Source: Eublepharis macularius (taxonomy: Eukaryota > Chordata > Lepidosauria > Squamata > Eublepharidae). From it: a DNA stretch of 64,000 bases. Position numbers and translations under genes: made by a program. The DNA lies in contig NC_072801.1 of the NCBI RefSeq assembly GCF_028583425.1, positions 59,535,766 to 59,599,765 on the forward strand, written 5' to 3'. A model generated the notes under the pieces. It saw only the letters and a list, made by a program, of their open reading frames with translations. It had not been told where the DNA came from and made no database searches. Below, in pieces: positions 2,097 through 63,266 of the stretch. Every line of letters begins with the position of its first letter. Positions within the stretch are counted from its first letter, which is position 1.

Positions 2097-2141
2097 TTCG
2101 CCAAGGTGCCAATGTGGTCTTCTGTTCACGAGCACGTGGAG
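2097..2141 (+). CDS. HSD17B14: Copy A exon 2
   Basis: 45 nt after a pyrimidine tract ending CTTCAG, donor GTGAGT. Encodes VRQGANVVFCSRARG, the beta-2 strand and cofactor-selecting turn. Phase 1 at both ends, as in copies B and C. Confidence 0.88.
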
Positions 2142-5100
2142 GTGAGTCAAGAGCCACTTTCCTCTCCCCCCCATGACAAGTTCCCCTTATTTGCTTAAAA
2201 AATGCCACCTCTACAGTAAACCTCCTTGGGGCAGTTTACAAAGGAAAACTAAATAAAATCAAAAAGACACATAAAATTGTTAATTAAAAAAAAAATCCCT
2301 GAAGATTATTACAAAAATTTAAACCAAGGATTAGTTGCCTCAAATGATTTATTTATTTATTCATTTTTATAGTGCTTCTCTTAAGTCCTTAAGACTAGAA
2401 AGTGACTATAAAAACCATTTCCAAAGAACAACCCCTTGTTTTAATGTCCAAGTAAAAAGAAAGGATTTGGCCTGGTGAGGCTCAAGGGGAAAGGCCTTCC
2501 ACAGTACTAGTGGCCACCCACATCCTCCCTGCAGGCACAGAGAGCAAGGCTTCAGGAATCATCTTAACAGAGGGGGAGGGGGGGCTGGACAATATGGGAG
2601 GAGGTGGTCCTTCAAGGACCCCATTTATGGCCTTGGAGGTAAGAACCAACCCTCTGTATTGAATGTGAGATGATCCAGCCTGACACAGGAATGAGATGAT
2701 CCCTGTATCCAGCCTCTTACTCTCTCCTGCTTCAAATATGTATTAGGTTTGCTAATATAAAGACAATATGAGGTTAAGGGTAGTAGATACAGGGAGGAGA
2801 GTAAGCTGGAAAGATAAGATCTTGGCCAAAGTGGTAACTCCCATCTTCTGCTCCAAGAACTGCCAGAGAAATTTTAAGTTCCATTAATCGAGGACAGTGC
2901 TGCAAACATACCAAGAGAAATATGCAGATGATGGCAAGTATGATTGTCAGACCTTTACAGGCATCTGTATACTCATCATTAAGTTCATTCTGTCTCCCTG
3001 TTCCAGTAGGTAACAGGACACAGATCCTGCTTCCCCAAGGTGCTTTCCCCTTTCAAACGGACTGTATTTGTCTAATTTTGCAGCACTTCTAAACAGCCTT
3101 TCTCCAAATGGAGAAAACAACCAAGTGAGGGGACGAATAGTCTCAACACATTTAGCAAATGTGCTTGTGTGTCTTGGGAATTTGGGCACAGTTGGAAAAA
3201 CAGATCCAGGGATGAATCAAAGGCTATGCAAAAAAAGGAAGGGATTATAGACCATTTATTCTCCTAGCAACTGTTCTGTCTCCTTGCAGCGGAAAGGGGA
3301 CAAGAAATTCAGAGGGAGCTGCAGGATTCTGGTTGCCCAGGTGACGCGTTCTACCAAGTCTGTGATGTCCGCAATGAGGCAGACATTAAGGTAGGCTAAA
3401 ATGAGGTAAATAGTGGAGCTTCTTTGAGGGCTCTTCAGCATTTCCAAAAAACGTTCTTTTATGTCTGTACTACGAACCATTCTCCTTATTCAAATTCTCC
3501 TTTGTCTGAATGGGTAGTGACTGTTCTTCTAGGCCTTTCCTCTTGATTTATGCTGCTCTTTCAAACATTCTCTGTCACCTGCTGATTTACGTATCTCTCC
3601 TCTGTTGAAGTGCTTGTATATGGTCCCACATGATTCCTCCATCAACCTTAAACTTCTGGTTCTCACTGTCATAGCTTATCCTTCCCTTGGCTGGTGCAAG
3701 AGGTTTCTGGAGCCTGACAATGGGCAGGGCTCAGCATTAGAGCAAAGGCAGTGCCTCTTTTACTTTGGGCCCAGTCAGGTTGAAAGCAGCTCATGGTTCA
3801 GAGTTCCTCATCAAACAAATGCTTGAGCACCGTCTTTCCAGGTTGCAGCCGGCTTTGTCCCCCATCCTACATATATACCTTCTTCTACGGTCACTCCTCT
3901 TCTCTTTTCCCATTTGCTACCCATCCTTCTGCGGCTCCTAGGCTTTCTCCCAATGTTTCAAACAGGTTTAACCCAAAGTAGTTCTAACGGTGGCTGCTTG
4001 CAGCTCTGGAATCACAGGACTCTCGATTATCTTGTGCTGCCTTAGATCTCTCTTTGTCCTCTGTTCCTGCAGAGGCTGATTTTGGTAACTATAGAAAGTT
4101 ATGGACGCCTGGACTGCCTGGTGAACAATGCTGGAACGGGTGAGTGATTTTCAAACTGTTGGGCTCAGGGAAGAAATTGGGATGGATGCGTCTGGGTGTG
4201 AGTGTGTTCCTTGATTATTCCAAAGCCACAATTGACTTGTTTAACAAAGGGTTTAAGGAACAGTTTTTGGTTGTCTTTTGTGCCAGGAGGAAGAGATAAA
4301 GATCGTTTAGGGGGCAGCAAGCTCTAGTTAGACTGGACAGTAGGGAAATGTGTTCCTTATTTCTAAAGGAGTTTTTTTCCTTGTCTGTCTGCAGAATGGT
4401 AATTTTAGGCTTCCCACACTTCTGCTCAACTCAAAAGGCAGCAAGCTTTAGCTTTTCTCTTTGTATCCAGTTTGTTGATTTTCTATCCAATCTATTAATA
4501 GAACCAACAAAGCCCTTGTTACTTTTCATTGATTCAGTCTCCTGGCTGCTGCATAGGCACTCTGCCAATAGCAATTGCCCAGTGGTTTTCCTCCTTGCCT
4601 GTCAATTTCTGGCAATCGGCTGGAGGTGGCAAGCCCCCCAGAGATTACCTGTTACCGGCAGGCAATCCAGGAAAGCACACACTGGGCATGCTTCCGGTAG
4701 GGTGCAACAAAATCACTTCCTGAAGTGACATCATAGTGGCAGCCTCGGGTATACTCCTGTGATTTGCTAGGGCTAATTTTGTCCTCTAATGGGCCAGAAC
4801 TAGCCCTTTTGGAGACTAGCACGGGAGCACACCCGTGGCTAGTGTGATAATGTCAGTTTCTGGAAGTGATGTCATCATCAGCATGCTGGGTGTGCACACA
4901 TGAGAAGATAGACATGCTGAACGCACAAGGTAAGTGCTAGATCCCACACCTCCTGCTGGGAGGGTATAGGGACCTGGCAACCCAATTCCATGAGGCTCCA
5001 TGTCTCACACTAACCCTTTCTAAAGATTATCTTCTTTTAAAGAATGAATAATTTCCAGGATGTAGGGATGGCTATTAGTTCAATTGGAAAATTAGACTGA

Positions 5101-8100
5101 TTCATGGAGGATGGGTCCATCAATGCCGATTATCCATGATGATGAAACAAAAACTCCGTATTAGTTTTTTTAAAAAGTATTTCTTCACAAACAAACAAAC
5201 AAACAAACAAACAAACAAACAAACAAACAAACAAACAAACAAACAAACAAACAAACAAACAAAATGTTGTGAGGCTAGGAATCTGTCCTCTTGCTCTTTG
5301 TAGATCTCGTCTCTGTGAAACTCACTTCTCTTTTGTATCTACTTGTTCCTCTTGCAAACAGCTTATTTTGAAAATATAGATGATGTGACTGCCCAAGACT
5401 TCTGCAGCCTCATGGACCTCAACATTGTGAGCTATTTATTAGCATCAAAGGTGAGTGATTCTAATGTATTAGCACTTTTCCTCTTCCCTGGGGGCAGCTG
5501 GCTTCCTCCAGAGCTGTAAGTCAAATTGGAAAAAGACCCTGGTCTACATTTTAGAGGTGCAATACTTTTCCTGCACATGTCAGTTCTCTGGTGCCACAAT
5601 CAGAGTGATGGGGAAGGGCCATGGCTCTACAACTTTGGACCTACTTTGCACCCTAAGCATTCACCCTCACCATCTCCAAGTGCAAGAATTTCCCCTAGCT
5701 GTGCTGGAAAGCATCTCTGCCAATCAGCACTTCTAAAGTAGGAAGATTAATAGTTTGACTCCAATATACAGCCTCTTTTTCAGTTTCTCTTTTGAGATGA
5801 GGGATGCTGTTTCTCTTTATACTTTGTGTACAGTACGCACTGCCCTACTTACGGGAAACGAGAGGAAACATCATCAACATTGCCAGTATTGCTGGTGTTC
5901 TCGCGGCGAAGAATGGCGTTTCATATTGCACAAGCAAGGTAATCCTGACCCAAGGTCAGAATCAGTTGCTGATATATTTGTACTTTTCTGCTCTTGTGCC
6001 TTTAATAGAAGCTTGATTGGCAGATGAAGGTTTTCACAGCATGGAGGTTGATACTATCATGGGCCTTGAAAAGCTCCACCTGCTGGCTCTTGTAAATTAA
6101 GTTGCTACTAAAGGCACAGGAGGAGGCCAGGATGGTATTTTTCAAGTTAGTTGGTGATTCTCATACATGAGGCTAAACCCAGTCTGTAAAGCTTTTGTGG
6201 AAGGTACATGTGCCTTCTTTTCATTAACAGGATGAGAAAAGCTCAATTAAACCTTAAAGTGAAAACTTTCATGTTTTTTAACCCTTACCTGTGAACAGCA
6301 AGTCGGGTGGCTAATCACCTTGAGAAAAAAAACTCCTGACCCTTTAACAGAGGCTTAATTGGAATTTTATTTGCAAAGTGATGTCATTTACCTCTCAGCC
6401 ATACAAAGTTTGGCCCTGAAGTATTTCACCTCCCCCACCCTCATATAACTTGTCTAGAAGGAACAGAGCTTTGTGGGGATGGTGATGACAGGTGCTGAGA
6501 GTCAGTGCTGATGACTGAGGAGGTCTGGCCCTACACCCTGGATTGGGTCCTCAGTAGGGTTGCGAACAGGCCTTGAGTAACGTGTCCGGTCCCAAGAGAA
6601 GCTTAGTAGCCCCTTGGATTGTAGAGATGATCACAAGAAACTTCTTTATGCTCATCAGATTGTAGTCAAAGGCCTAAAAGAAGGCCAAACCATTCTCGGT
6701 CAATTGGCAACCCTACTTGTACCTTTATCTTGCAGGGTGCTGTGATCGCAATGACGAAAGCCCTGGCCATAGATGAGAGCAAATACGGAGTGCGAGTCAA
6801 CTGGTAAAACTTATTATCCATACAGAATCTCCTCAGCGCATATTGCAATTTGCAGAGAAATATCAGGAAAGATAGGCAGGTCCCCCAAATCCCAGTGCCA
6901 GAAGCTTAAGGTTATGGCTAAAATAAAAAAGAGACAATAGAAGGGGAAGATAAGGAATGGTAATGGGGAATTGGCATTCTCAGAGTGTAATATCCGGACA
7001 ATTGGGCTGGGATCACTTTCTAGAGAAGGTATAAGTATTACGAAGTCCTCACATTTTTTTGTCTTTCAAATATTGTTCCTTATGAGAAGAGAAACACAAG
7101 GAATAGATTCTGCACATTTTTTTCAACTTCTAGAATTACAGGTTAAGAAATGAATCCCATTGTTTTCAAACCCATTGGAATAACTTGGTGTCCAGAGATG
7201 GGGAGTCTGCCCCCCCTGGACTTTCCCGTCCAACTGACATGGGAGCAGGAGGTGAAGGTGATGATGGGGGAAGATCCCCAGCAGCTACAGGAACTGGCGG
7301 CAGAAATGCCAGCACAGAACCTGGCGACTGAGGCAGGAGCGATCCCAACGCGGACTGTCGGAACCACAAAGGGGATGCTGGGAGAGAGCGCACTGGGCAA
7401 GAATGAGCTCTCCAGCGTTCTGTGCAGCCCAGCCAGCCCCATCCTACAGGGACAATTGTACTCCACGGGACTACAGGCAGGAGGAAGGCAGGAACGGATG
7501 CTCTGGGGAACCCACAGTTGATCCAAAGGCCTTTTGCTTCAGGATGGGAGGAGAGCATGGGACAGAGCTTGGGGGAGTGTGGAGGGAGAGCAGAGAGAGA
7601 ACCTGAGGGACTGAGAGCAAGCGTAGCCTTGCTGGACCTGCCATCCAGGCAGGGATGAAAGGGCATGAGAGTGCTGTATACCTCCCTCTTCCCCAATTCT
7701 GAGACTTGCCTCATGACCCATCTGAGCCTTAGGGCAACCTGGAGGGTGAGCCCCGCCCCCCCAGGTTCCAACGTCCAGTATACCAAACCTGACACCTTGT
7801 TTTCCTTAAAGCTGGCCATAGGAAGTGTCTTTAAAGATAAATGTTCATAGTCTATGTGATATTGCCAAAACACTGATACTACTGCACTGACAGCTAGAGA
7901 AGGTAGAAGATGTCCACTTGTTAAGAAGGTCTCTCCCAGGTGTGCAGCTTTACAAATCCACGAAACAAAAAATATTAAACAGGGGTGGTAGTGGTGGAAT
8001 TCTAACTGCAATGACAGTCATAAGCAAATGATTTGTTAATTTCACATAGGCTGAGGTTTGCAATGGCTGTATTCCATTCTGTATTTTCCTGGGATGTATA

Positions 8101-9268
8101 AAATAAATAATCATGCATAGGGGTTTGTGGGGCGAATCAATTCAGATAGTGTGTTGAACTGTAAGTTGGATATTAATGTATTTCTAGAAATATGAAAGAC
8201 ACTTCTTCAAAACTCATTCATTTGGAAATTTATTTTTTGACATTTCATGATGCCCCTATCCTTCTTCCTTTAATTCTGAAATATATTATACTGCAGCATC
8301 TCACCAGGCTATATCTGGACTCCTTTGTGGGAAAAGTTGGCAAATCAGACACCGAATCCAGAGGCAGCAACGCGGGAAGCCAAAGGTCATCAGGCAAGTG
8401 TGTGGCAGGAAAAGTGGGGCCATTCTGCCATTCTTAGGGTGGGGTCTGAAGTTCTCCCAGAATGACAACTACAGAGATCAGTGCCCAGGAGAATATTGCA
8501 GCTTTGCATGTTCGGTGAGGCAGAAGTCCTAGAGGGGCTGGCTACAGAGGGTGAATGCTCTTGGACTTCTGTTTGCCCTATGGAAGAAGCATCCCTGCTG
8601 AGCTCCCTTCTCAGGCACTCTCTATGGATCTCCCAAACCAGAACCTACAACTTTAGGTCTACCATGGCCTCTATCTGGAGGCCCCAGACTAGGCCACTCT
8701 CAGAAGCTAAGGTGGGACAGTTCTGGTTTGTACTAGGATGGGAGATCACCAAGGGAATCTAGAGTTTCTACCCAGAGGCAGGCAATGGTGTCACCCTCTG
8801 AATATCTCTTTGAAAAACCTACAAGATCACCCTAAATCAGTCGTGACTTGTTAGCAAAAAAACAAACAAACCTTCTAACACATATAAGGTGCTCATAATA
8901 AGTGCCACTGTGAATTCACTGGTAGAAAAAATAATTGAAAGTCAGAATCCTGCACGAAGGAAATCTGAAATCTACTGTTAATAAAACCCACCGTGCTGAG
9001 ATTCAGCTCATAATCTAATCTCACATTAGATGAGTATAGGATTCTACCTTTCTCTTCTTTTGCATACTTACAGCTTCTGGGACGTCTTGGGACCCCAGAA
9101 GAGGTGGCCTTGGGCATCCTGTACCTGGCTGTTGATGGAACTTTCTGTACTGGTTTCAACCTCGTGCTCAGTGGTGGAGAGGAAGTTGGCTTTGGGAAGA
9201 AGAGTGAGGTGGATCCTGAGCCTGGCCCAAGTGCAAGTGGGAGCTCCCAGTTCTTCTCTAAGAAGTAA
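2097..9268 (+). CDS. HSD17B14: Copy A: HSD17B14-like short-chain dehydrogenase (exons 2-9, 5' part outside window)
   Basis: Classical SDR oxidoreductase. Exons joined by eye: 2097-2141, 3290-3390, 4073-4139, 5362-5450, 5834-5938, 6736-6803, 8297-8393, 9074-9268; all have AG acceptors, GT donors (GC for intron 8) and an open frame to TAA at 9266. With an exon 1 like copies B and C the protein would be 284 aa, against 270 aa for human HSD17B14 as I recall it. Visible motifs: LDCLVNNAG, catalytic Ser in NIASIAGV, catalytic YCTSK (YxxxK), YGVRVNCISPG and IWTPLWEKLA, which tracks the human ISPGNIWTPLWEEL. Human HSD17B14 is a cytosolic tetramer using NAD to oxidise 17-beta-hydroxysteroids; L-fucose dehydrogenase activity is also reported. 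Here the residues after strand beta-2 read VVFCSRA instead of the human VVICDKD, which in SDRs usually means NADP(H) preference (inference). This is the most canonical copy of the cluster. Confidence 0.9.
2344..2710 (-). repeat. Old interspersed repeat in intron 2 (copy A)
   Basis: Begins with an ATTTATTT tail and contains GCAGGCACAGAGAGCAAGGC and GGTCCTTCAAGGACCCCATT. The same block is in intron 2 of copies B (28160-28960) and C (56160-56500), so it predates the duplications. It looks like a LINE 3' end; family not assigned. Confidence 0.45.
3290..3390 (+). CDS. HSD17B14: Copy A exon 3
   Basis: 101 nt, acceptor CTTGCAG, donor GTAGGC. Begins AERGQEIQRELQDSG and ends CDVRNEADIK; the CDV aspartate is the usual adenine-pocket residue of SDRs. 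Confidence 0.88.
4073..4139 (+). CDS. HSD17B14: Copy A exon 4 with canonical NNAG
   Basis: 67 nt, acceptor CCTGCAG, donor GTGAGT. Encodes RLILVTIESYGRLDCLVNNA plus GT. The NNAG motif that closes the Rossmann core is intact here, unlike copies B and C. Confidence 0.88.
4600..5010. repeat. Copy A-specific insert in intron 4, unresolved
   Basis: Not alignable to intron 4 of copies B and C. Contains GAAGTGATGTCATCATCAGC and GGACCTGGCAACCC, motifs typical of squamate non-autonomous DNA repeats. Exact ends not found. Confidence 0.35.
5188..5264. repeat. (AAAC)n microsatellite
   Basis: About 19 perfect AAAC units in copy A intron 4. Copies B and C have only ACCAAACAAACC here, the likely seed. Confidence 0.97.
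5362..5450 (+). CDS. HSD17B14: Copy A exon 5
   Basis: 89 nt, acceptor AAACAG, donor GTGAGT. Encodes AYFENIDDVTAQDFCSLMDL then NIVSYLLASK, the helix alpha-E region. The VT pair is absent from copy B. Confidence 0.86.
5834..5938 (+). CDS. HSD17B14: Copy A exon 6 (catalytic Ser, Tyr, Lys)
   Basis: 105 nt, acceptor GTACAG, donor GTAATC. Contains YALPYLRETRGNIINIAS followed by IAGV and VSYCTSK, giving the catalytic serine and YxxxK pair at the human spacing. Confidence 0.92.
6736..6803 (+). CDS. HSD17B14: Copy A exon 7
   Basis: 68 nt, acceptor CTTGCAG, donor GTAAAA. Encodes GAVIAMTKALAIDESKYG then VRVN and two bases of a Cys codon. It differs from copy C at one synonymous base. Confidence 0.92.
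7184..7792. mobile_element. Copy A-specific insert in intron 7, family unknown
   Basis: Copies A and C align up to GGAATAAC and resume at TTTTCCTTAAAGCTG; between them copy A has about 600 bp of GC- and purine-richer DNA. Open frames exist on both strands (for example 7166-8011 minus, 7150-7521 plus), overlap each other and show no recognisable domain, so I treat them as chance. Possible short repeat of CTTGG/CCTTG at the ends, not convincing. Confidence 0.4.
8297..8393 (+). CDS. HSD17B14: Copy A exon 8, GC donor
   Basis: 97 nt, acceptor CTGCAG. Encodes ISPGYIWTPLWEKLANQ then TPNPEAATREAKGHQ, the substrate-loop region. The donor is CAG/GCAAGT; joining there keeps the human length between REGMLAQ and PLGRMG. 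Confidence 0.87.
8640..8860 (+). mobile_element. 5S-rRNA-derived SINE, intron 8 copy A
   Basis: CTCAGAAGCTAAGGTGGGAC and ACTAGGATGGGAGATCACC follow the internal promoter half of 5S rRNA; the body GATCACCCTAAATCAGTCGT and an A-rich tail follow. Same site in copies B and C. Confidence 0.7.
9074..9268 (+). CDS. HSD17B14: Copy A exon 9 (terminal coding exon)
   Basis: 195 nt, acceptor TTACAG, ends TAA. Begins LLGRLGTPEEVALGILYLAV, then DGTFCTGFNLVLSGGEEVGF and a Ser/Gly-rich tail ending FFSKK. The tail is about 14 residues longer than in human HSD17B14. Confidence 0.9.
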   Translation, partial: LLGRLGTPEEVALGILYLAVDGTFCTGFNLVLSGGEEVGFGKKSEVDPEPGPSASGSSQFFSKK

Positions 9269-10106: not shown

Positions 10107-10861
10107 GACATGGCTCAATGAAAAGAGATTCCAGAAATATGTTTTTGCTGTTTGGTATATTAGCTTGCATCAAGACTTACCATAATTGCTGTGTTGGATT
10201 TGGTGTCCTCTCAGCTTCCTTTCTCTTTAGCTCTGGTCTCTGCCTGGATTAGTTTGCTTCTTCCCTTTCACTACCTTTCAGATTGTTTTTAGGCAAATTA
10301 TGCTTACTTGCTGATGAAGGAACGGCAATTTTGTACATCCTTCAAAAGTCAGGCTTCTTCTGACCAAAGCAAAGGCAGAGTTGGTGTATATCTCCTCATC
10401 CTGGGATACCTCTAAGCACTTCAGCTGTTGAACCAATGATGAAAAAGTCATCCAACGTTTTTAAATGCAACCATCAAAATATGTACTGTCTGAACTTTCA
10501 GGGAAGAACTTAGACAGTCCGGAAGATTTCCTCAGAAATCCTACAGAAAGTCTGAGGATCCAAAAACATGATTATCTGTCCCTCAAAACAGCTGTCTTTC
10601 CCTCATGCCTGTCTCCCCACCTTGGTGGACATAGCAACTGGAGTCCCCCGTTAGCTTAAATTCTTGAAAGAGGGACTGAAAACTGAATTTAAAAAACAGT
10701 TCACTACAAATAGAATTTTTGATGATTTAGCAAAGCATATGAGAGGAGTGGAGATGGCAACGGTAACATTAGAAGGAAAGCCGTGTAAAAATCTGTCAAG
10801 TATGCTGAGAAAATACAAGCTGTTTTTCAAGAATGAGGGAGCTCAAAGTAGAGGAGCTTGC

Positions 10862-11379
10862 CAGGGCCGGATCTAGGGTTGCCCACGCCCGGGTCAACCC
10901 AAGCTCCCCGCACTGTGTGATGACATCACTTTTCCAATGTCATCATGCGGGACCCCCTGAAAAAGCATGCCACCCCACTGCTGCTGGAGGGAAGGGAGCT
11001 CATGGCAAGCCGGCCACCCCGGCACACGGTGCGCCACGGACCTGGAGGTGGCTGCACAGGCGGCCGAATGGAGGGCTGGAAGGCCGTGCCATTCGCCTGC
11101 ACCACTGACGGGGCAGCCAGCTTGCCGCTCGCTCCCTTCCCTCCAGTGGTAGGTAGCGCAGGCAGCATGCTTCTGGGGGGCACCCCGCGCTGCTGCCAGC
11201 CACCCCATCAGCGGGACAGGTGAATGGTGCGGGTGGCGTTCCAGCCCTCCATTCAGCTGCCCACGCGGCCGCTGCCAGCTCCGCAGCGTGCGTTCCTGGC
11301 TGGCAGCCGTGCCGGCCGCCCCCTCTTTGGCGGTGCCCGGGGCAGGGTAACTTCCCTGCCTCCCCTCGATCTGGCCCTG
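10862..11379. mobile_element. GC-rich hAT-like element, 518 bp
   Basis: Target duplication GAGCTTGC at 10854-10861 and 11380-11387; ends CAGGGCCGGATCTAGGG and its complement (GATCTGGCCCTG). The empty site is at about 51805 in the paralogous segment. Long GC-rich ORFs inside are chance. Confidence 0.8.
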
Positions 11380-11627
11380 GAGCTTGCAAACATGGGATGG
11401 AGGGTAAACACCGATTTTGAAGGTATCCCTCAGTTTTGGAGAGGGGATAACATGGAAAACATTATGTCAGGATTGGTTGCTTTACAAATGAAGAGATGGC
11501 AAAAGAATCCTATGTCATAATTGTGCAATTCATTGCAATTCTGTAATTAGAATGACAATTCTCTCTTCTTCCAATTCAACAATGCCCCATTTTATCAAAG
11601 CCTTTCTACATAAGCCTTAAAGCAGCG

Positions 11628-11855
11628 GTGCCCAACCTTTTTGAGTACGAGACACCTTTTTAACCTCAACAAATTTCATTGTCCTCCCACCTGGTGGTAG
11701 TGAACACTTGTATTAATATACACTGATTCAGAAAAGCAGTGACAAAAAGATGAAAACGACAGTTCTTAGTGCACATATAGATTTACCAACCCCTTGCAAC
11801 AACTCCATAACTCCTCAGGTGTCTGTAGTCCACAGGTTGGGAACCATGTCCTTAA
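11628..11855. mobile_element. hAT-type MITE fragment
   Basis: Starts GCGGTGCCCAACCTTTTTGA and ends CCACAGGTTGGGAACCATGT, the terminal motif of hAT-derived MITEs. Confidence 0.5.
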
Positions 11856-12407: not shown

Positions 12408-12415
12408 CCTAGCAC

Positions 12416-13160: not shown

Positions 13161-13162
13161 GA

Positions 13163-44335: not shown

Positions 44336-45073
44336 TGTCTACAGAAAACAAACCAACTGAAGAAAAAAATGGCTAGAAGTATTCTGGCCTCCTGCTTTTC
44401 ACTATCCAGACATTACTATTTGCTTAACTCTCAGGATGGTTTGCTGTGTACGTGTGTGCATGCATGCATGCTTGGCTTTTCTTCCTACCAGTCTTGAGGC
44501 ATAGTTGATGAGTACTGATGAAAGATCCTGTCCCTCAGGCATGGTTTTGGGGCAGTTGTCAGGGCAAAGGAAGGAAGACTCTTAATTTCTTTTTTCTACG
44601 ATAGAAGTTCTACTTGGGGAGGATGGTGTTGGAGAACATTCATTCAACTGTATAGAAAAGGCAATTTAAAAAGCAGAGCTCTGTATGAGTGCTTAAAAAA
44701 AAGTTCATACCACCAAGAAGACTTGTTTACCTGTGTATAGTACAAATTAAAGATATTTGCACTGATGATTCTGCAAGGAGGTGTTTTATTTCACCGTAAT
44801 GAAGTTTACTTTGTACTTACCACATTTTTTTGATAAATGCAGGGCAGGGATGACTTTGCAGGTTACTCCAGCCTCTTTCTATTCTCAGGATTTAGCCCTG
44901 GAGCGTGTTCTTGGTTGCATGACTGAAAGAAGTCAGCTGACAGAACAATGAGGAAATGGAATGGACCCCCACAAAGGCAAGAGGGCTTTGGGGAGGGCCT
45001 TCTTTTCATGGGAGACACTCTGGTGGATGGTTTGTGGTGAGAAGATCTGTCTGTGGAAGATTGCCCCTTCTGA

Positions 45074-45202
45074 GGGCCAAACTACAAGTGATGAATGACA
45101 CTTGAACAGCAAGTGTATTCCTCCCTGTTCACTTGCCCTCCACTTGCTCTCCACTCGATCTACTTGCCGTTCAAGTGTCATTTGTCACTTGTAGCTTGGC
45201 CC
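45074..45202. mobile_element. 129-bp palindromic MITE
   Basis: GGGCCAAACTACAAGTGATG to its complement, flanked by TGA (45071-45073, 45203-45205). Copies A and C show the empty site CCTGAGACTGAAAAC. Confidence 0.88.
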
Positions 45203-45343
45203 TGAGACTGAAAACAACTCTTCCACTTACAAAGTATTTGTGAATTTATTTGAAGACTTAAATGGTGGGAAAGGCAGGAAGTCAGTCTTGTAGACAAATA
45301 AATCTAGTGATGTACATCTCTCTTTGTGAGTCAAGCCTCTGAG

Positions 45344-51346: not shown

Positions 51347-51357
51347 CATCCTGGGAT

Positions 51358-52040: not shown

Positions 52041-52049
52041 AAGGAGCAG

Positions 52050-52883: not shown

Positions 52884-52971
52884 ATGGCAACTTATCTGTG
52901 TTACCTGGGCAAGGTGACAATAGTGACTGGTGGCACCAGTGGCATCGGCTTAGCCATCGTAAGAGAATTTG
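52884..52971 (+). CDS. HSD17B14: Copy C exon 1 with start codon
   Basis: 88 nt, same GCTAGCATGG start context as copy B, donor GTGAGC. Encodes MATYLCYLGKVTIVTGG then TSGIGLAIVREF. Confidence 0.92.
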
Positions 52972-55900
52972 GTGAGCATGGAGCGCACTGGATAGGGATG
53001 GAGGAGTGGGCAATTTCTGCCTACAGGAGGTGGGGTGAAGCCAGCCAGGAAGACTAGGAAGGCTAGCTCTCTAAATATTCAATTGGGTGGAGAGGAAATG
53101 GGAGGGAGGGGACTATGCTCTTTATATCCTCATAGGCACATGTCTTTTTTGTGAACACAAGAAAGACATTGTGGTGTAAGGTCTCGTGGTGCAGAGACTG
53201 TGGTCCCTTTTTCCACTTATGGTTTAAACTGCCATTCATGAGCATTTTATTCAGTCACAATGGCTTTGGCATGTCACTTCCACATTCCACATTGTTCGAG
53301 GCTGTTTTGACTTGGCATCTTCTTTTTCATTTTAGACAGGCTTTGAAGCCTCGGTGCACTTTTGGGCTTTCAGGGCTTTTCAATTCACGTCACACTTTTT
53401 TAAAAAAACTTTGAGCATGCGTAGTAATGTTGCAATGTTGGAACCCATCTCCCACCCCCTGTATTTGCTGATTGGGCTGTCCCCTGCAGAATGGAGAGGC
53501 AATTGGTGACAGAGTTCTGAGGAAAACATGTACTTTTCATGCTCGTTCCACTCTCATTTATTTTTTTAAAGCCAAGCCAGGAAAGGGTTAAAATGCTGCT
53601 GCTTCATTTCCTTCTGGCAGCTTCCCTGCCTCTTTGTTTTTATTCTTTGGCATTAGCAGAAGATACCTGGAAGGAGGGAAAAGCAGCCATTTAACCCTTC
53701 CCTGGCTTTTAAAGCCAGCAGAAAATAAGCAGCAAAGTTAGGAATTGTTCCTGGCTTTGAAAAAAAAATAAGAGAGTGCTTGCATTCCTGGGAAGAAGGA
53801 GGCCAATGGAGAAGCAGCCGGGGAAAGAAGAGGGGAAAGAAGAGAAACAGACGGGGAGTATAGAGTTCACACTGACATTAATCAGGCCGGATGTGACTCG
53901 GCAGCAGCTTCAAAATAAATCTCAGTATGCCTGAAGGGGAAAAATCGGGGATACCGCAGACAAAAATCAGTTCTGCATCCCATTACTACCCTGCAAGTGT
54001 GGAACATGGGAAGCAGAACAGATACTGAAATGCTTTAAAGTGACAGTCTGAAAAGTACCTGTTTGTTAGCCTTTGACATACTTGATGTAAAAGCTATAAT
54101 TTAGTTTGCATATATTTCAGGTAACCAAACATCCAAAGGAGGAGTGCCCTGTTGAGCAAATGGCATTTCATTGGCCTGCTCTTCCTGGCTCTCCGGGCTA
54201 ATTCAGATCCTGATCATGAAAAGGAGAATCAGAGGGTGGTTTGGTGTTCAACATCCTCCCCCTTAAACTGGATGACTGTAGGCGGAATTTGCTGGGAGTA
54301 TTTCTGCCCCATTGTCCAACTTAAGGGGAGGATGTTGTGATCAGTTGGTTTAATATGAAACCAGCCTCTGATCCGCCATTGAGACCCATTGACTGGGAGA
54401 AAAGCAGGATAGAAATCTTTTAAATCAATAAAGTTGAGCAAAAAATGTTATCATCTGTACTGCCATTAATAGTTTCTCCAGAAATGTATCTCTCATCACA
54501 GATGAATTACTGGGAGTGAATAGTCTACGTGTGAAGTGCAAGGAAAATAGTCAGGGTACTATTGCTCCAGCCTTCTGCCTGGACTAAATAATACACAATC
54601 TCTTTAATATCAGCTGCATGGATGCTATTTACCAGGTGATGTTACTCACCTCCATCCCATGAAAAGCTTTTGTTGCCCATTTTTACATATTAAGCTTCTG
54701 TTAAAGATACTGGACATTTTTCTCCAGCCTTGTTGCCTACCCTAAATGGGACAAAATACAACGGTTATACATCGCATGTGTCTTAACTAGTACATTCATT
54801 GGAAATGTTGAGCATTTGAGAAAACTAATTCCCCCTCCCCTCCTCAGGAACAAGGGGGAACTGTTGTGTTTCCAATCAAGCAGGTGGCTCTTCTGCCAGT
54901 CCTCCTCAGTTCATTGTTATGACCTGACTTGGGGATTTTCATTTCCTTTCCTTTTCATGATCCTGATTACTCTCACCAGCAGATGATCTTATTTCCAGGG
55001 AAACTGGTCTCACCTGGAGTTATCCAAGATGGCTAAACAGTGGGCAGGCTGAATGGATAAAACATCTTCAAAGGATTGGGCTAAGTCTCAGATCCATAAA
55101 GAATTCTTGTTGACTGGAACATCAAGCAATGGTTCAGGCGAAGGAACGGGTCATCACAAATTTAACACGGAAGACAGTATTTTTCAGTCTCTTCCCTTCA
55201 TTCGATGCACAATACATTTAAATGGACAGTTCATAAATTCTACTGAGGGCCAAGCTACAAGTGACGCCTGGGGAAGATGGTGTTGGAGAGCATTCATTCT
55301 ACTGCATATGAAAGGCAATTTAAAAAGTAGAGCTCTGTATGAGCACTTAAAAGAAAAAAGCTAATGCTTACCGCTAAGAAGACTTGTTTACCTGTATATA
55401 GTACAAATTAAAGATATTTGCATTAATGATTCTGCAAGGAGGTGTTTTATTTCACTGTAATGAAGTTTACTTTGTATTCCCAACATTTTTTTGATAAATG
55501 CAGGGGTGGGGTGACTTGACTGGTTACTCTGGACTCTTTCTAGTCTCAGAGTTTAGCCCTAGAGTATGTTCTTGATTGCATTATTGAATGAAGTCAGCTG
55601 ACAGAACAATGAGGAAGTGGAATGCACCCCCACAGAGGCAACAGGGCTTTTGGGAAGGGCCTTCTCTTCATTGGAGACAGTCTGGTGGATTGTTTGTGGG
55701 GAGAAGATCTGTCTCTGGAAGATTGCCCCTCCTGAGACTGAAAACAACTCTTCCACTTGCAAAGTATTTGTGAGTTTATTTGAAAACTTAAATGGTGGGA
55801 AAGGCAGGAAATGAGTCTTGTAGACAAACAAATGTAGCGATGTACATCGCTCTTTGTGTGTCAAGCCTCTGAGTTGTGTCTTCCGCTTTTTTCTCCCCTT

Positions 55901-58900
55901 GCTCTTCAGTTCGCCAAGGTGCCAAGGTGGTCTTCTGTTCCCTAGCATCTGAAGGTGAGTCAAGAGCCACTTTCTTAATCCCCTTGACAAATGCCCAATT
56001 TTTGCTTAAAAATGCCACATTTACAGTGAAACTCCTTGAGGCAGCTGACAAATGAAAATTAGATAACATCAGAAAGGCCCATAAAACTGTTAATTAAACT
56101 AAACATTAAAAACCCTTCAGGATCATTACAAATACATAAAACAAGATTTAGTTGCCTACAATGATTTATTTATTCTCTTCAGTAAAGGTCTAAGTTAAGT
56201 CCTCAGGCTAGAGGCTGACTATAATAACAATTTTCAAAGAAGGACTCCTGGTTGAAAAGTTCAGGCAAAAAGAAATGTTTCGTGGGGAAAGGCATTCCAC
56301 AGTCCTAGTGGCCAGGCCACATCCTCCCTGCAGGCACAGAGAGCAAGGCTTCAGCAATATGGGCGAGGTGGTCCTTCAAGGACCCTATTTATGGCCTTGG
56401 AGGTAAGAACCAACCCTCTGTATTGAATGTGGTCAGGATTCAGGAACACATTGGCAGCTAGTAGAGCGCTCCTGGCACAGGAGTGAGATGATCCATGTAT
56501 CCAGGCCTTTACTCTCTCCTTCTTCCAATATATATTAGGTTAGCAAATATAAAGAAATATGAGGTTGAGAGTAGTAGATGCAGGGAGGAGACAGATAAAA
56601 TCATGGTCAATGGGGAATGCCATCTTCTGCTTAAAGCACTGCCAGAGAAAGAATACCGGAAAGAGATTTTAAGTTCCATTCATTGCGGAGAGTTTAGCAA
56701 ACACACCAAAAGAAATATACAGAAGATGGAAAGTAGCATTGTCAAACCTTTTCTTGTATCTGTATGCTTATCAGTCATTAAATCCATTATTTCCCCCTGT
56801 TCCAGTAGGATACAAGAGTCAGAACCTGCTTCCCCGAGGAGCTGCCCCCTTCCCAACAGACTGCATTTGTTTAATTGCGAAGCACTTCTAGCCTACCTTT
56901 CTCCAAATGGAGAAAACAACCAAGTTGGTGGGGGGAGAAATACTTGCAAGACGTTTTGGAAAATATATTTGGTACTGGGGCACAGTTGGAAAAACAGATC
57001 CAGGGATAAGTCAAAGGCTATATAAAAAGGAAAAGGAATGAAGATTTATTCCACTGGCAACTGTTCTGTACTATCCCCTTGCAGCAAAAAAGGGACAGGC
57101 AATTCAGAGGGAGCTGCAGGATTCTGGGTGCCCAGGCGAGGCGTATTTCCAAGTCTGTGATGTCCGCCAGGAGACAGACATCAAGGTAGGCTAAAACTGG
57201 CTGAATAGTGATCCTTCTTTGGTGGTTCTTCAGCATTTCCCTGAAATGTCCTTTCATGTCTGTACCCAAAACCGTTCTCCTTATTCTAATTCTCAGTTGT
57301 CTGAATGTGTCATCGTGACTCGTGAGTTGTGACAGTGTTCTGCTGTGCCTTTCCTCTTGATTTATTGCTGCTCTTTCATACATTCTCTGGTACCTAATAA
57401 ATCATGTTCACGGGTTCCTACTTGATTCCCTTATCAGCCTTAAACTTCTAGTCCTCACTGTCATTGAATATTCTTACTTTGGCTGCTGCAAGAGATTTCT
57501 GAAGTCTGACAATGGGCACAGCTCTGGTACATTTGTACCCTCTTCTTTGGTCAATCCCAACCTCTGTCCCCACTCCCACCAACATTCACCAGGCTGATGG
57601 GAGGAGAAAGCACAGAGAATGAGCTCAGGACTCGGAGCTCAGCAGCTCTTTCTTGTCACGCTAGGAATAATATCATTCCTGGAGTGACAAGAAAGAGCTC
57701 TTTAGCGCTCGCATGGTTTGCGCTCTCATGAGGTATGTTCCCTCCAAATGCCTCCCCATGACCCCCCCCATTCCCCAAGTTTGGGTTTCAAGGAACCTAG
57801 AAACCCTATTTGATCGCTACACTCCTCTTTTCTCAGTTGCTACCCATCCTTCTTTGTCTTCTAGGCTTTCTCCCAGTGCTTCCAACAGGTTGTGCCAAGG
57901 GAAGTTCTAATTGTTTCTTGCACCCGAATCACAGGACTCTCAGTTCTGTTGTTTTTCTGCTCTAATCTCTCTTTATCCTCTGTTCCTCCAGAGGCTGATT
58001 TTGGTAACTATAGAACGTTATGGATGCCTGGACTGCCTGGTGAACAATGTTGCAGATTGTGAGTTATTTTCAAACTCTTGGAGTTATTTATTTATTTATT
58101 TAGTCACATTTCTAGACCGCCCTCCCCGTCAGACGGGCTCAGGGTGGTTTAACAACAGCTTAAAACAGTAAAAGCATTATAAAAACATTAAAATATATCA
58201 AAACAATTAAAATTGGCGGGTATAAAATATTAAAATACAGCATTTTCCTGCATGGGTGGTGGGAGGTCTTCAGTGGTATGGCCGACGAGAGAACAGCCTA
58301 GCCCCCACCAAATGCATGGCGGAACATCTCCGTCTTGCAGGCCTGGCGGTTAGGGAAGAATTTGGGATAGATTTTAGAAACAGTTGTTGGATGTCTTTTG
58401 TACAAAGAGGAAGAGAAAAAGATCCTTCAGGGGGTAGCAAATTCTAGTTAAACTGTAGTACCTTCTTTCTAAAGGAGATTTTCCTTGTCTGTCTGCAGAA
58501 TGCTATTTTTATGTCTTTCTTCCAGAATTCTGCACACTCTCACTTAATCCACAAGCCAGCAAGCTTTATCTCTTACCTTTGTAACCAATTTGTTGATTTT
58601 CTATCCAGTCCATAAATGGAACCAAAAAAGCTTTTGTTAATAATCATTGGTTCAGTGTCCTGGCTGTAGCATAGGCACTCTGGCAATAGCAATAACTTTG
58701 GAGGTGGTTGTTTATAAAGAAACTAAAGAAATCGTAGTATCCTAACGATACAAAAAATTTATATAAAGCTTTTGGAACTCCCTTCACTGAGGCCCCTTGT
58801 CTCCCACACTAAACCTTTCTAAAGAAAATGGTATCTTCTTTTAAGGAATAATTAACTTGTGGATGTTGCTGTTCCAAGATGTAATGGTGACCATAAGTCA

Positions 58901-61900
58901 ATTGGAGGATAAGACCAATACATGGAGGATGTGTCCATCAGTGCCGATTAGGCATAATGATGAAACAAAAACTCCATATTACTTTTTTAAAAAGCATTTA
59001 TTTACCAAACAAACCAGCATGAAAAACATCATCATATTATGGGGCTGGGGAATCTGTTATCTTGATTTTTATGGATCTTGCCTCTGTGAAACTCACTTCT
59101 CTTTTATTTCCACTTGATCCTCTTGCCAACAGATTATTCTACCAAGATAGATGATGTGAGTTCCAAAGACTTCTGCAGCCTCATGGACCTCAATGTTGTG
59201 AGCTGTTTGTTAGCATCAAAGGTGAGTGATTACAATGTATAAGCACTTTTCCTTTTCCCTGGGGGCAGCTGGCCTCCTCCCCAGCTGAAAGTCAAATAGA
59301 AAAAACTCTGTGGAGTGGTATATGTTTTAAAGGTGCAATGCTTTAGCACTTGACCTGTGTATGTCAGTCCTCTGGAGTCCTAATTAGAGCGACAGGGAAA
59401 AGGCCATGGCTCTACAACTGTGGACCTGCTTTGCACCCTAAGCATTCACCTTTACCATCTCCAGTTGCAAGAATTTCCTCTGTCTGTGCTGGGAAGGGTC
59501 TGTGCCAGTCAGCAATTGTAAAGGAGGAGGATTAAACGTCCGACTCTAGAATACAACATTTTTGTCAGTTTCTCTTTTGAGATCAGGCATACCCTTTATC
59601 CTTATATTATTTGTACAGTACTCACTGCCCTACTTACGAGAAACGAGAGGAAACATCATCAACATTGCCAGTATTGCCAGTGTTATCGGGGCGAAGAATG
59701 TTGTTTCATATTGCGCAAGCAAGGTAATCCTGACCCAAGAGCAGAATCAGTTGCTGATGTTTTTGAATGTATCTGCTCTTGTGCCTTTAATATCAATTTA
59801 ATTGGCTGATGAATGTTTTCACAGCATGGAGGTAGACACTCTCATGGGCTTTGAAAAGCTCCACCTGCTGGCTTTTGTAAATTAAGTTGCTATTAAAGGA
59901 ACCAGAGGAGGCCAGGTTGGTATTTTTTCAAGTTTTCTGGCAGTTCTCATACATGAGTCTAAATCCGGTCTGTAAACAGTCAAGGCTTTATGGAATGTAT
60001 ATATGTCTTCTTTTCATTTACAGGCTGAGAAAGCTCAATTAAATCTCAAAAGTGAAAACATCCTACACATTTTCAGCCTTACCTTTGAACCACAAGTAGG
60101 GTTGCAAACCACATTGAGGGAAAAAAATGACGTCACTTTTAATAGAGGTTTAATAGGAATGGTATTTACAAGATGAGATAATTTACCTCAATACTATAAA
60201 AGTTTGGCCGCTTGAATATATCAGCTCCCCCCCCCCATTTAACTTATCTAGATGGAACAGAGCTTTGTGGGGATGATGAGGGCCAGTAGTGAAAGTCAGT
60301 GCTATCAGATGAGGAGGTCTGGGCCTACACCCTGGATTGGGTCCTCAGTAGGGTTGCCAACAGGCCTTGAGAAAATGTCCTGTCCCAAGAGAAGCTTAGT
60401 AGCAACTTGGATTGTAGACATTATCAGAAGAAACTCCTTTTATGTTAATCAGATTGTAATCAAAGGCATAAAAGAAAGCCATGCCATTTCTGGTCATTTG
60501 GCAACCATAATTGTCCTTTTATCTTTCAGGGTGCTGTGATCGCAATGACCAAAGCCCTGGCCATAGATGAGAGCAAATACGGAGTGCGAGTCAACTGGTA
60601 AAAATTATTCTTTATACAGAATCCCCTCAGTGCACATTGCAATTTGCTGAGGAATATCAGGAAAGAAAGGCAGGCCCTCCATATCCCAATGCCAGAAGCG
60701 TAAGAACTAGATTTTTTGCCGAGATAATAGAAGGAGAAGATAAGGAATCGTAATGGGGAATTGACATTCTCGGGGCCAAGCTACAAGTGACGAATGACAC
60801 TTGAACAGCAAGTGGATTAAGTGGAGGGCAAGTGAACAGGGAGAAATACACTTGCCGTTCAAGTGTCATTCGTCACTTGTAGCTTTGCCCTCAGAGTGTA
60901 ATATCTGGACAATTGGAATAGGATCACTTTCTAGAGAAGGTATAATTAGTATGAAGTTCACAATTTTTTTTTTGTTCCTTATGAGATGAGAAAGACAAAG
61001 AATAGATTCAGCACAAAATATGATAAACTTCTACAATTCTGCATCCCATTGTTTTCAAACCCAGGGGAATAACCTGGTTTTCCAGTTCAGTTCAGTTAAC
61101 CTTTATTGGCATCAGTTGGCACAATATTCACAATACAAGAAACAGAAAAACAAAGTTACTTCTGGTTCCTGGTTTTCCTTAAAGCTGTGCATAGGAAGTG
61201 TGTTCAAAGATGAGTGTTCATATCCATTTGTATGAGATCACCAAAGCACTGAAACTACTGAACTGACAGAGAAGGTGGGAGGCATCTACTTACTAAGGGG
61301 GTCTCTCTAAGGTGTGCAGAAAAGTACAGCTTTGTAAATCAACTAAAAGAAAAATAAGAACCAGGGGGTGGAGTGGGGGAGGAATTCCAACTTCAATGAG
61401 AGCATATCTTCTCCAGTGAGCTTAGAATGTAAAAAGCAGCTGGGAGTCAAAGGAGAAAAAGACTTGGGGGGGTGGGGGAGAAATCAACCTGCCTAAGAAC
61501 TTACAGAATTCTGAAGGAGGTGATTTGGTGAAGCAAAAACAGCTGTCCAGTGATTCTTTCTAGGCCTGCTGCTTATAACAGCAACAACAACATTCAATTT
61601 ATATATTGCCCTTCAGGATGACTTAAGACCTACGTATGTCATTATTATCTCCACAACAAAACACCCTGTGAGGTGCGTAGGGCTGAGAGAGCTCCTAGAA
61701 GCTGTGACTAACCCAAGGTCACCTAGCTGGCTTCAAGTGGAGGAATGGGTAACCAACTATCTATACATACCTTTTAAAATTTGTATTTATGTTATTGCTA
61801 CTGCTTTTGCGGGGGGGGGGGCATAAACAAGTGATTTTTAAAATTCCTCATGGGCTGAGATAGCAGTCTACATTCCTTTCTGTATGTTTCTGTGATGTAT

Positions 61901-63266
61901 AATAGAATAATCATGCATCGGCTTGTAAGGGTTAATCAGTTCATATAGTAAGGTGTAAGTTAATGTCTATCTAGAAAGAGGAAAGAAACTTCTTCAAAAC
62001 ACATTCCTTTGGGAATATATTTCTTGATACTTCATGATGCCCCTGCCCTTCTTTTTAATTCAAAAACATTTTGTTTTCAAGCATCTCACCAGCTTGTATC
62101 TGGACTCCTTTGTTGAGAAGCGTTATAAGTCTGTCACCAGATCGACAGGCGGCAATCCAGGAAAGGAAAGATCATCAGGCAAGTGTGTTGCAGGACAAGA
62201 GGAGCAGTGAGCCTGCCCATCTGGCTCTGCCATCCTTTGGATGGGAACTAAAGTTCTCCCTGAATTAATGACAACTACAGGGATCAGTGTCCAGGAAAAT
62301 ATCACAGATCTGCATGTTAAGGGAAGCAGAAGTCCTAGAGTGGCTGGGTACAGAGGGTGGATGCTCTTGGACTTCTGTTTGTCCTATAAAAGATGCATCC
62401 TTGCTGAGCTCCCTCCCCAGGTACTGTCTCCTGATCTCCCAAATCCGAACTGGCAACCCTCACTCTACCATGCCCTCTATCCAGATGGCCCAAACCAGGC
62501 CACTCTCAGAAGCTAAGCTGGGAAAGCCCAGTTTGTACTAGGATGGGAAATCAAGGAAACCTAGAGTTGCTACCAAGCATGCCCCTCTGAACATTTCTTT
62601 CCTTGAAAACCTTACAAGGTCACCCTAAGTCAGTTGTGACTTGATAGGAAAAAAAGTTCTACCATGTCTGGGAGCCAAACTACAAGTGACGCCTGACACA
62701 AGATGGACACTTGTCAGGTTCCCTCAAGTTTCGTTGGGAAACGTAGGCATCTTGGTCTTGCAGCTTGGCTCTCCAACTGCTGTCCAATGGACTTTTCAAC
62801 TGTCACTTGTCCAACATTCCATCAAGCTGCCTACATTTCCCATCAAAACTTGAAGGAAGCTGACAAGTGTCCAACTAGTGTCAGGTGTCACTTGTAGTAG
62901 GTAGGGCTGTGAATAGACTGGTAGAAAAAATAATGAAAGTCAGAATTCTGCACCAAAGAAACCTGCATTCTACTGATCAAAAAATCCGCTGTGCCGAGAT
63001 TCAGCTCATGATCTAATCTCATATAAGATGAGTAAAGAATTTTACATTTCTCTTCTTTTGCAGATTTATAGCTTCTGGGACGCTTTGGGACCCCTGAAGA
63101 GGTAGCCTTGGGTGTCCTGTACCTGGCTGCTGATGGAACTTTCTGTACTGGTTTCAACCTCATACTCAGTGGTGGAACGGAAGTCAGCTTTGGGAAGAAG
63201 AGTGAGGTGGATCCTCAGCGTGGTCCAAGTGTGAGTGGGAGCTCTCAGGACTCCTCTCAGAAGTAA
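52884..63266 (+). CDS. HSD17B14: Copy C: HSD17B14-like SDR, full-length 284 aa
   Basis: Nine exons: 52884-52971, 55910-55954, 57085-57185, 57992-58058, 59133-59221, 59619-59723, 60530-60597, 62082-62178, 63072-63266, open to TAA at 63264. TGGTSGIG cofactor loop, catalytic Ser in NIASIASV and YCASK are present. It is the most diverged copy at functional sites: CSLA after beta-2 (Arg of CSRA lost), NNVAD instead of NNAGT, IASV instead of IAGV, and substrate loop ISPACIWTPLLRSVISLS. Exon 7 is almost identical to copy A. All splice signals are plausible, with GC at intron 8. It is probably expressed protein-coding DNA, but loss of the NNAG glycine makes retained activity uncertain. The alternative is a young pseudogene that has not yet acquired a stop. 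Confidence 0.87.
53168..54058. mobile_element. Copy C-specific insert of about 890 bp in intron 1
   Basis: Copies B and C align on both sides (GAACACA before, TGTTAGCCTTTGACATACTT after) but only C has this block. Imperfect complementary pieces TTCCACATTCCACATTGTTC and AAGTGTGGAACATGGG suggest a DNA element. No protein domain. Confidence 0.5.
55910..55954 (+). CDS. HSD17B14: Copy C exon 2, Arg lost after beta-2
   Basis: 45 nt, acceptor CTTCAG, donor GTGAGT. Encodes VRQGAKVVFCSLASE; the Ser-Arg pair of copies A and B is Ser-Leu here. Confidence 0.88.
57085..57185 (+). CDS. HSD17B14: Copy C exon 3
   Basis: 101 nt, acceptor CTTGCAG, donor GTAGGC. Begins AKKGQAIQRELQDSG, ends CDVRQETDIK. Confidence 0.88.
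57992..58058 (+). CDS. HSD17B14: Copy C exon 4, NNVA variant
   Basis: 67 nt, acceptor CCTCCAG, donor GTGAGT. Encodes RLILVTIERYGCLDCLVNNV plus AD; both Ala and Gly of NNAG are replaced. Confidence 0.87.
58083..58250. mobile_element. Retroposon tail in copy C intron 4
   Basis: (TTTA)n, then TCTAGACCGCCCTCCCCGTC and GGGCTCAGGGTGGTTTAACA, a common squamate repeat 3' end. Absent from copies A and B. Confidence 0.6.
59133..59221 (+). CDS. HSD17B14: Copy C exon 5
   Basis: 89 nt, acceptor CAACAG, donor GTGAGT. Encodes YYSTKIDDVSSKDFCSLMDL then NVVSCLLASK, full length. Confidence 0.87.
59619..59723 (+). CDS. HSD17B14: Copy C exon 6 (catalytic)
   Basis: 105 nt, acceptor GTACAG, donor GTAATC. YSLPYLRETRGNIINIAS, then IASVIG and VSYCASK; catalytic residues kept, a conserved Gly after the Ser changed to Ser. 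Confidence 0.92.
60530..60597 (+). CDS. HSD17B14: Copy C exon 7
   Basis: 68 nt, acceptor TTTCAG, donor GTAAAA. Peptide GAVIAMTKALAIDESKYG then VRVN and Cys, identical to copy A. Confidence 0.92.
60773..60890. mobile_element. 118-bp palindromic MITE in copy C intron 7
   Basis: GGGCCAAGCTACAAGTGACG to near complement, flanked by TCG and TCA. Copies A and B show the empty site GGCATTCTCAGAGTGTAAT. Confidence 0.88.
61083..61165 (-). mobile_element. LINE tail in copy C intron 7
   Basis: GTTAACCTTTATTGGCATCA near the left end is the complement of a LINE 3' tail like that at 31761. Confidence 0.5.
61575..61760 (-). mobile_element. tRNA-SINE fragment, minus strand, copy C intron 7
   Basis: AACAACAAC tail, CCCTTCAGGATGACTTAAG and GAGAGCTCCTAGAAGCTGTG match 13163-13430 but lack the tRNA head. 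Confidence 0.72.
62082..62178 (+). CDS. HSD17B14: Copy C exon 8, GC donor, diverged loop
   Basis: 97 nt, acceptor TTTTCAAG, donor GCAAGT. Encodes ISPACIWTPLLRSVISLS then PDRQAAIQERKDHQ. Same length as copies A and B but many changes in the middle. Confidence 0.85.
62455..62660 (+). mobile_element. 5S-type SINE, intron 8 copy C
   Basis: CACTCTCAGAAGCTAAGCTG and TACTAGGATGGGAAATC; same locus as in copies A and B. Confidence 0.68.
62672..62902. mobile_element. Palindromic MITE, longer relative
   Basis: Left CTACAAGTGACGCCTGACAC and right GTGTCAGGTGTCACTTGTAG arms; inner arms around GGGAAACGTAGGCA and TGCCTACATTTCCC. Copy C only. Confidence 0.7.
63072..63266 (+). CDS. HSD17B14: Copy C exon 9
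   Basis: 195 nt, acceptor TTATAG, TAA at 63264. LLGRFGTPEEVALGVLYLAA, then TFCTGFNLILSGGTEVSFGK and a Ser-rich tail ending DSSQK. Confidence 0.9.
   Translation, partial: LLGRFGTPEEVALGVLYLAADGTFCTGFNLILSGGTEVSFGKKSEVDPQRGPSVSGSSQDSSQK

What the first reader, a model, noticed from the sequence alone, without database searches (positions are those of the whole stretch)
2097..63266. Head-to-tail array of three HSD17B14-like genes plus a relic
Three copies share all exon lengths (except 6 nt in B exon 5 and the shifted B exon 9), phases and even old intronic repeats, so they arose by tandem duplication of a unit of roughly 27 kb. Human, as I recall it, has one HSD17B14. A local expansion of a steroid or sugar dehydrogenase in a squamate would be of interest for hormone or pheromone metabolism (inference).
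Basis: partly seen in the sequence, partly recalled or inferred. Interest (0 to 1): 0.75.

Follow-up and report, generated by a model that had tools for sequence, protein, structure and literature searches.

The report
Large HSD17B14-like enzyme gene array
The three duplicated dehydrogenase genes seen here are part of a run of about 21 tandem copies of one enzyme gene, and the copies differ most in the parts that grip the substrate, as if one enzyme had been turned into a kit of many.

Summary
Confirmed, and larger than reported. The window holds three head-to-tail nine-exon HSD17B14-like genes (A, exon 1 upstream of the window; B; C) and a non-coding relic. They sit in a ~516 kb array on contig C12: at least 25 exon-9 and 21 same-strand exon-1 matches, read as about 21 genes plus relics. 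The neighbourhood is that of HSD17B14: a BCAT2-like exon 24 kb past the last gene, Tub-family exons ~115 kb and glycogen-synthase exons ~0.66 Mb before the first. The gene nearest BCAT2 (P) is the most human-like over the exons compared. Of 10 genes modelled in full, 9 are open; B is frameshifted in exon 9. Pairwise dS (0.19-0.38) rules out false duplication. Site models find positive selection (M2a over M1a 2dlnL 28-56; 0 of 100 null simulations as high) at sites in exons 6 and 8, which carry the active site and substrate contacts; exons 1, 3, 7 show none. Three of 20 copies lost the catalytic Tyr. Best reading: the ancestral sugar dehydrogenase gene was kept while tandem copies diversified in substrate. 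Substrates are unknown; a pheromone role is unsupported.

The parts
2097..9268 (+). Copy A, exons 2-9: 2097-2141, 3290-3390, 4073-4139, 5362-5450, 5834-5938, 6736-6803, 8297-8393, 9074-9268 (exon 1 lies upstream, window -2704..-2617); open 284-aa frame
   Evidence: splice model; PDB match to human HSD17B14
25871..38575 (+). Copy B, exons 25871-25958, 27938-27982, 29579-29679, 30689-30755, 32452-32534, 33130-33234, 35638-35705, 36603-36699, 38447-38575; 6-nt deletion in exon 5; 5-nt deletion shifts exon 9 so that the usual C-terminus is replaced by a short tail: probable pseudogene or altered product
52884..63266 (+). Copy C, exons 52884-52971, 55910-55954, 57085-57185, 57992-58058, 59133-59221, 59619-59723, 60530-60597, 62082-62178, 63072-63266; open 284-aa frame
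42452..45343 (+). Relic of a further unit: 5' flank and intron-1 fragments, no coding exon
   Evidence: alignments to A, B and C
10397..11634 (+). Two blocks (10397-10860, 11380-11634) repeating the 5' flank of copy C (51347-52055), between A and B
   Evidence: self-comparison

Best explanation
The window is the middle of a ~516 kb tandem array of about 21 genes derived from HSD17B14 at its ancestral locus beside BCAT2 (shown). The gene next to BCAT2 (called P) keeps human-like pocket residues and probably the ancestral sugar dehydrogenase role (inferred). The other copies formed by repeated tandem duplication (shown by the collinear introns; unequal exchange inferred) into two old groups, type I (n0, c1, c3) and type II (the rest). 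Most of those read in full still encode complete classical SDR enzymes: exons 1, 3 and 7 are under purifying selection, while sites in exon 6 (between catalytic Ser141 and Lys158) and exon 8 (which carries contacts Trp192 and Leu195) changed under positive selection (shown by site models): human positions 143, 151, 155, 156, 186, 195, 199, 205 and, more weakly, 148. Most likely mechanism (inferred): each copy is an NAD(P)-dependent oxidoreductase with its own small-molecule specificity, a substrate-diversified battery for dietary, foreign or endogenous carbonyls, alcohols and sugars, not extra dose of one hormone enzyme. Copies F, n13 and n14 lost the catalytic Tyr and are probably inactive as dehydrogenases (inferred from Y154F in the rabbit enzyme, PMC11293516).
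For: Family. Extent: 25 exon-9 and 21 plus-strand exon-1 matches between C12:59414845 and 59931007; 264 kb of it read through. Locus; BCAT2 and HSD17B14 are adjacent in human and other mammals (PMC11293516, section 4). P: identical to human at 73 of 115 shared sites of exons 6, 8, 9, other copies 42-53% (three of them, n0, B and n14, on fewer sites); P stands apart in the tree. Intactness: 9 of 10 full models open. Selection: omega 0.26, 0.28, 0.17 in exons 1, 3, 7 against 1.43 and 1.07 in exons 5 and 8; M2a over M1a 2dlnL 55.7 for 20 copies, 28.1 for 9 full-length, 28.0 for 7 type II, 31.7 for exon 6 and 8.5 for exon 8 on their own trees, 0.00 for exons 1+3+7; parametric null for the 9-copy set 0 of 100 reach the observed grid value 31.6, maximum 7.84. 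Pocket: contacts of estrone/estradiol named in PMC8787064 are His93, Gln148, Trp192, Leu195; Q148 is kept in 1 of 20 copies read (P), W192 in 14 of 20, L195 in 4 of 20.
Against: No expression or enzyme data. That the selected sites line the pocket is inferred from sequence position; no structure of a copy was made, and for 205 and 113 I know no pocket role. Gln148 reaches posterior 0.90 only in the exon-6 set and is not listed in the others. Omegas near 1 in exons 4, 5 and 8 also fit relaxed constraint; only the site models argue for more. Gene conversion can inflate site tests; own-tree tests of exons 6 and 8 lessen this, and exon 8 alone gives only p=0.014. The site models are my own script, not PAML; a single-start fit gave 18.7 instead of 28.1 for the 9-copy set. 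B is broken, n18 stops about six codons early, three copies lack the catalytic Tyr. Eleven of 21 genes were read only in part. Many nodes inside type II have support under 50.
Confidence: 0.7

Rival explanations
1. A decaying array: tandem duplicates under relaxed constraint, with only P functional.
For: B frameshifted; n16 and several one- or two-exon fragments are relics; catalytic Tyr lost in F, n13, n14; overall omega 0.52 (type II, counting) to 0.61 (M0); exons 4, 5, 8 not distinguishable from omega 1.
Against: 9 of 10 full models open with all splice sites at pairwise dS of 0.19-0.38; omega 0.17-0.28 in exons 1, 3, 7, significantly under 1; a class above 1 in the site models.
Confidence: 0.16
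2. Hormone or pheromone enzyme expansion: copies convert sex steroids or skin semiochemicals.
For: Family name and weak steroid activity of the human enzyme (PMC11293516, passages and section 8 read); the substrate-binding exon is what changes.
Against: The human enzyme prefers L-fucose over estradiol ~360-fold (PMC11293516); Gln148, an estrone/estradiol contact, is replaced in 19 of 19 non-P copies read; no expression evidence was available.
Confidence: 0.08
3. Dose array: many copies of the same activity, for instance L-fucose or related sugar oxidation.
For: The mammalian enzyme is a sugar dehydrogenase (PMC11293516); catalytic triad complete in 17 of 20 copies read.
Against: The copies do not share pocket residues: positions 143, 148, 151, 186, 195 vary widely, most of them with support for positive selection.
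Confidence: 0.05
4. Assembly artefact: false or haplotypic duplication.
For: Tandem repeats are a usual site of misassembly (general knowledge).
Against: Aligned intron and flank blocks differ by about 11-24% and dS is 0.19-0.38, far above allelic difference; the 264 kb read contain no N; spacing is irregular.
Confidence: 0.01

Closest known systems
Human HSD17B14 (DHRS10, retSDR3), PDB 1yde / 5hs6; L-fucose dehydrogenase in human and rabbit (PMC11293516)
   Same: Best match over the full length; S-Y-K triad in 17 of 20 copies read; BCAT2-like gene next to the array, Tub-family and glycogen-synthase genes upstream
   Different: About 21 genes here, one in human (recalled); Gln148 only in P; no Asp just after the second beta strand in 12 of 12 copies read; different C-terminal tail
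dhrs11 tandem arrays in cichlid fish (8-14 copies; PMC8073704, passages read)
   Same: Local tandem expansion of a classical SDR gene in a vertebrate
   Different: Another SDR gene, fewer copies; hsd17b14 is not among the tandem duplicates named in the passages I read
Detoxification gene arrays (CYP, UGT, GST; recalled)
   Same: One conserved member beside fast-changing tandem copies with selection at the substrate site
   Different: Other enzyme family; here no function has been tested

Membership tests
HSD17B14 | Full-length sequence match better than to any other SDR of known structure | tested here: met
   (copy A): the 9 best PDB sequences are HSD17B14 (259.7-265.1 bits), next 143.4 bits
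HSD17B14 | Conserved gene neighbourhood: BCAT2 adjacent (PMC11293516); TULP2 and GYS1 nearby (recalled) | tested here: met
   (exon 72 bits to mitochondrial, 65 to cytosolic BCAT); that the Tub and glycogen-synthase genes are TULP2 and GYS1 is inferred from place; PLEKHA4 and PPP1R15A not sought
HSD17B14 | Catalytic triad Ser141-Tyr154-Lys158 | tested here: met
   Ser 18 of 20, Tyr 17 of 20, Lys 20 of 20 copies read; not met by F and n14 (Ser, Tyr) and n13 (Tyr)
HSD17B14 | Substrate-contact residues Gln148, Trp192, Leu195 | tested here: not met
   met by P; over 20 copies read Gln148 in 1, Trp192 in 14, Leu195 in 4; so the others are HSD17B14-derived paralogues not presumed to share its activity. 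His93 not tested
HSD17B14 | Acidic NAD determinant after beta strand 2 | tested here: inconclusive
   No Asp at the aligned place in 12 of 12 copies read; a two-residue length difference makes the alignment uncertain
HSD17B14 | NAD-dependent L-fucose dehydrogenase activity | not testable with these tools
   needs protein
Classical SDR | SDR domain | tested here: met
   PF00106 175.9 bits, PF13561 174.6 bits for copy A, the one copy scanned

The most novel reading that the evidence does not exclude
A lizard turned a single-copy sugar dehydrogenase gene into an old, 20-gene, substrate-diversified enzyme array under positive selection at the pocket, comparable to CYP or UGT detoxification arrays, with a possible coenzyme shift towards NADP(H) and with catalytically dead members kept as open frames (new binding or regulatory proteins).
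Probability: 0.35. Interest if true: 0.75.

Novelty: new variant of a known kind. Interest (0 to 1): 0.6.

Why it matters
The physiological substrate of HSD17B14 was only recently proposed to be L-fucose. A natural set of about 20 paralogues whose substrate-binding parts were varied by selection, with the ancestral residues kept in one gene beside BCAT2, gives a ready experiment on which residues set substrate choice, and points to an unrecognised chemical task in this animal. It also shows that a view limited to one window can undercount an array by a factor of seven.

Tried and rejected
Search for RNA genes and tRNAs in the window: none. Exon 2 of P was sought in 2.2 kb and then 1.8 kb without success and found in a third stretch. 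Idea that loss of the NAD-type Asp is special to the array: rejected, P lacks it too. Structure prediction was not tried: the spliced proteins are not letter-for-letter translations of contiguous DNA, which the tool asks for. Copy number in other vertebrates was not tested: the sequence collections here are prokaryotic, viral and plasmid. Literature: of ten searches six bear on an expansion and none of their listings shows a paper on a reptile HSD17B14 expansion; the other four were on the gecko genome or the human structure. The library lacks most subscription journals. The leopard gecko genome paper is not held; passages of PMC13148402 and PMC12265721 gave no assembly size to compare.

Full report
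Observation. A self-comparison of the window shows three collinear units whose aligned intron and flank blocks are about 76-89% identical. Exon models give nine coding exons per gene. Copy A has its exon 1 upstream of the window, at -2704..-2617; B is 25871-38575 and C 52884-63266. Exon lengths agree except for a 6-nt loss in B exon 5 and a 5-nt deletion in B exon 9 that shifts the frame. Internal splice sites are AG/GT except for a GC donor at intron 8 in 10 of 10 full models. The relic at 42452-45343 holds 5' flank and intron-1 pieces and no coding exon.

Identity. Copy A matches human HSD17B14 structures at up to 265 bits; the next SDR scores 143. Pfam gives the classical SDR domain.

Extent. 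Reading 100 kb on either side and searching the genome shows that the three genes are the middle of an array from about C12:59414845 to 59931007, 516 kb. (140 of 207 candidates scored, so a lower bound) lists 25 exon-9 matches and 21 exon-1 matches on the plus strand plus one inverted exon 1. Pairing them gives about 21 genes: n0, c1-c4, A-F, n11-n15, n17-n20 and P. Relics: an exon 8+9 pair (59436128, 59437741), n16 (59810854), exon-9 fragments at 59892588, 59915617 and just upstream of A, an exon-1 remnant between c2 and c3, and an inverted exon 1 with a weak exon-2 match after F. Ten genes were modelled in full: nine are open (284-295 aa), B is not. Of the other eleven I read only some exons; none of those exons has an internal stop except a stop about six codons before the usual end in n18; the end of P was not determined.

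Locus. The only Aminotran_4 (BCAT) match over threshold (4 candidates scored; a second BCAT gene was therefore missed or too split to score) lies at C12:59954850, 24 kb past the last gene; its exon is nearer to mitochondrial (72 bits) than cytosolic (65 bits) BCAT. Tub-family exons lie at C12:59292228-59299619 and glycogen synthase exons at C12:58.74-58.76 Mb; both families also have members on other contigs. This is as around human HSD17B14 (TULP2 and GYS1 recalled; BCAT2 adjacency stated in PMC11293516, section 4). The strongest match outside the array, C8:41020079-41020545, fuses exons 3-5 without introns but keeps the start of intron 6: a partly processed retrocopy of type I.

Which copy is the parent. 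Over the shared sites of exons 6, 8 and 9, P (nearest BCAT2) is identical to human at 73 of 115 (63.5%); the others are at 42-53%, n0, B and n14 on fewer sites. P keeps Gln148, Trp192 and Leu195. The tree separates P, type I (n0, c1, c3; support 100 for the split) and type II (all others; 99); support within type II is mostly low.

Selection. Pairwise dS among the full type II copies is 0.19-0.38 (B aside). By exon, omega is 0.26, 0.45, 0.28, 1.06, 1.43, 0.70, 0.17, 1.07 and 0.54 for exons 1 to 9; exons 1, 3, 7 are below and exons 5 and 8 above the overall value with p under 0.004, but exons 4, 5 and 8 do not differ from 1. My own implementation of the site models gives M2a over M1a by 2dlnL 55.7 with 20 copies (B left out, 11 of the 20 partial), with 5% of codons at omega 3.3; 28.1 with the 9 full-length copies, 28.0 with the 7 full type II copies, 31.7 and 8.5 for exons 6 and 8 on their own trees, and 0.00 for the control exons 1, 3 and 7. 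M8 over M8a is significant in the same four sets and not in the control. In 100 simulations under M1a on the 9-copy tree with its gaps none reached the observed 31.6 (maximum 7.84). A single-start fit gave 18.7. Sites listed in at least one set map to human 113, 143, 148, 151, 155, 156, 186, 195, 199 and 205. 113 rests on the 7-copy set alone, 148 on the exon-6 set alone (0.90). PMC8787064 (passages read) names His93, Gln148, Trp192 and Leu195 as contacts of estrone and estradiol: Leu195 is among the well-supported sites, Gln148 among the weak ones, Trp192 is not listed though it varies in 6 of 20 copies, and His93 could not be tested because it falls at an exon junction with length variation. 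That the other sites line the pocket is inferred from their place next to Ser141, Tyr154, Trp192 and Leu195 in sequence.

Catalysis and coenzyme. Ser141, Tyr154 and Lys158 (triad as in PMC11293516) are kept in 18, 17 and 20 of 20 copies read. F and n14 have Cys and Asn, n13 has Asn for Tyr. Rabbit Y154F is inactive (PMC11293516, section 8), so these three are probably not dehydrogenases. None of 12 copies with exon 2 read, P included, has an Asp just after the second strand; a shift towards NADP(H) is possible, inferred only.

Function. The mammalian enzyme is an L-fucose dehydrogenase with ~360-fold preference over estradiol for the human enzyme (PMC11293516; passages and sections 4 and 8 read). 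I therefore take the ancestral role as sugar oxidation, kept by P, and the array as a set of diversified oxidoreductases. The pheromone idea is open but has no support here. Tandem growth of SDR genes is known (dhrs11, 8-14 copies in cichlids, PMC8073704, passages read), so the kind of event is known; the family, the size and the selection at the substrate-binding exons are what is new to me. Six literature searches on this listed no report of it.

Organism. Not established. 2.237 Gb in 72 contigs with C1 at 255 Mb, C12 at 81 Mb and C19 at 26.8 Mb fits the leopard gecko with 19 chromosome pairs as I recall it.

Noticed in passing
window 20037-24637 (+): A LINE-like element between A and B: an unbroken 281-aa frame followed by a 1260-aa frame with endonuclease and reverse transcriptase domains, probably a recent L1-type insertion; it coincides with the strong purine skew of 19.5-25.5 kb.
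   Followed up: partly
window 33489-35372: Inverted repeats (108 and 159 bp, 92-96% alike) with a reverse-transcriptase fragment on the minus strand (33689-34639) inside intron 6 of copy B.
   Followed up: partly
intron 8, e.g. window 8394, 36700, 62179: GC instead of GT donor in 10 of 10 full models and in 9 of 10 further genes with exon 8 read; n19 (L061) has GT.
   Followed up: partly
L033 (C8:41018579-41021857): Partly processed retrocopy of a type I gene: exons 3-5 fused, start of intron 6 kept.
   Followed up: partly
window 40582-40963: GC-rich tandem repeat, period 186 (2.1 copies), with strong self-complementarity, between B and the relic.
   Followed up: no
window 12050-12211: 162-bp palindrome (92.6% self-complementary) between A and B.
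   Followed up: no
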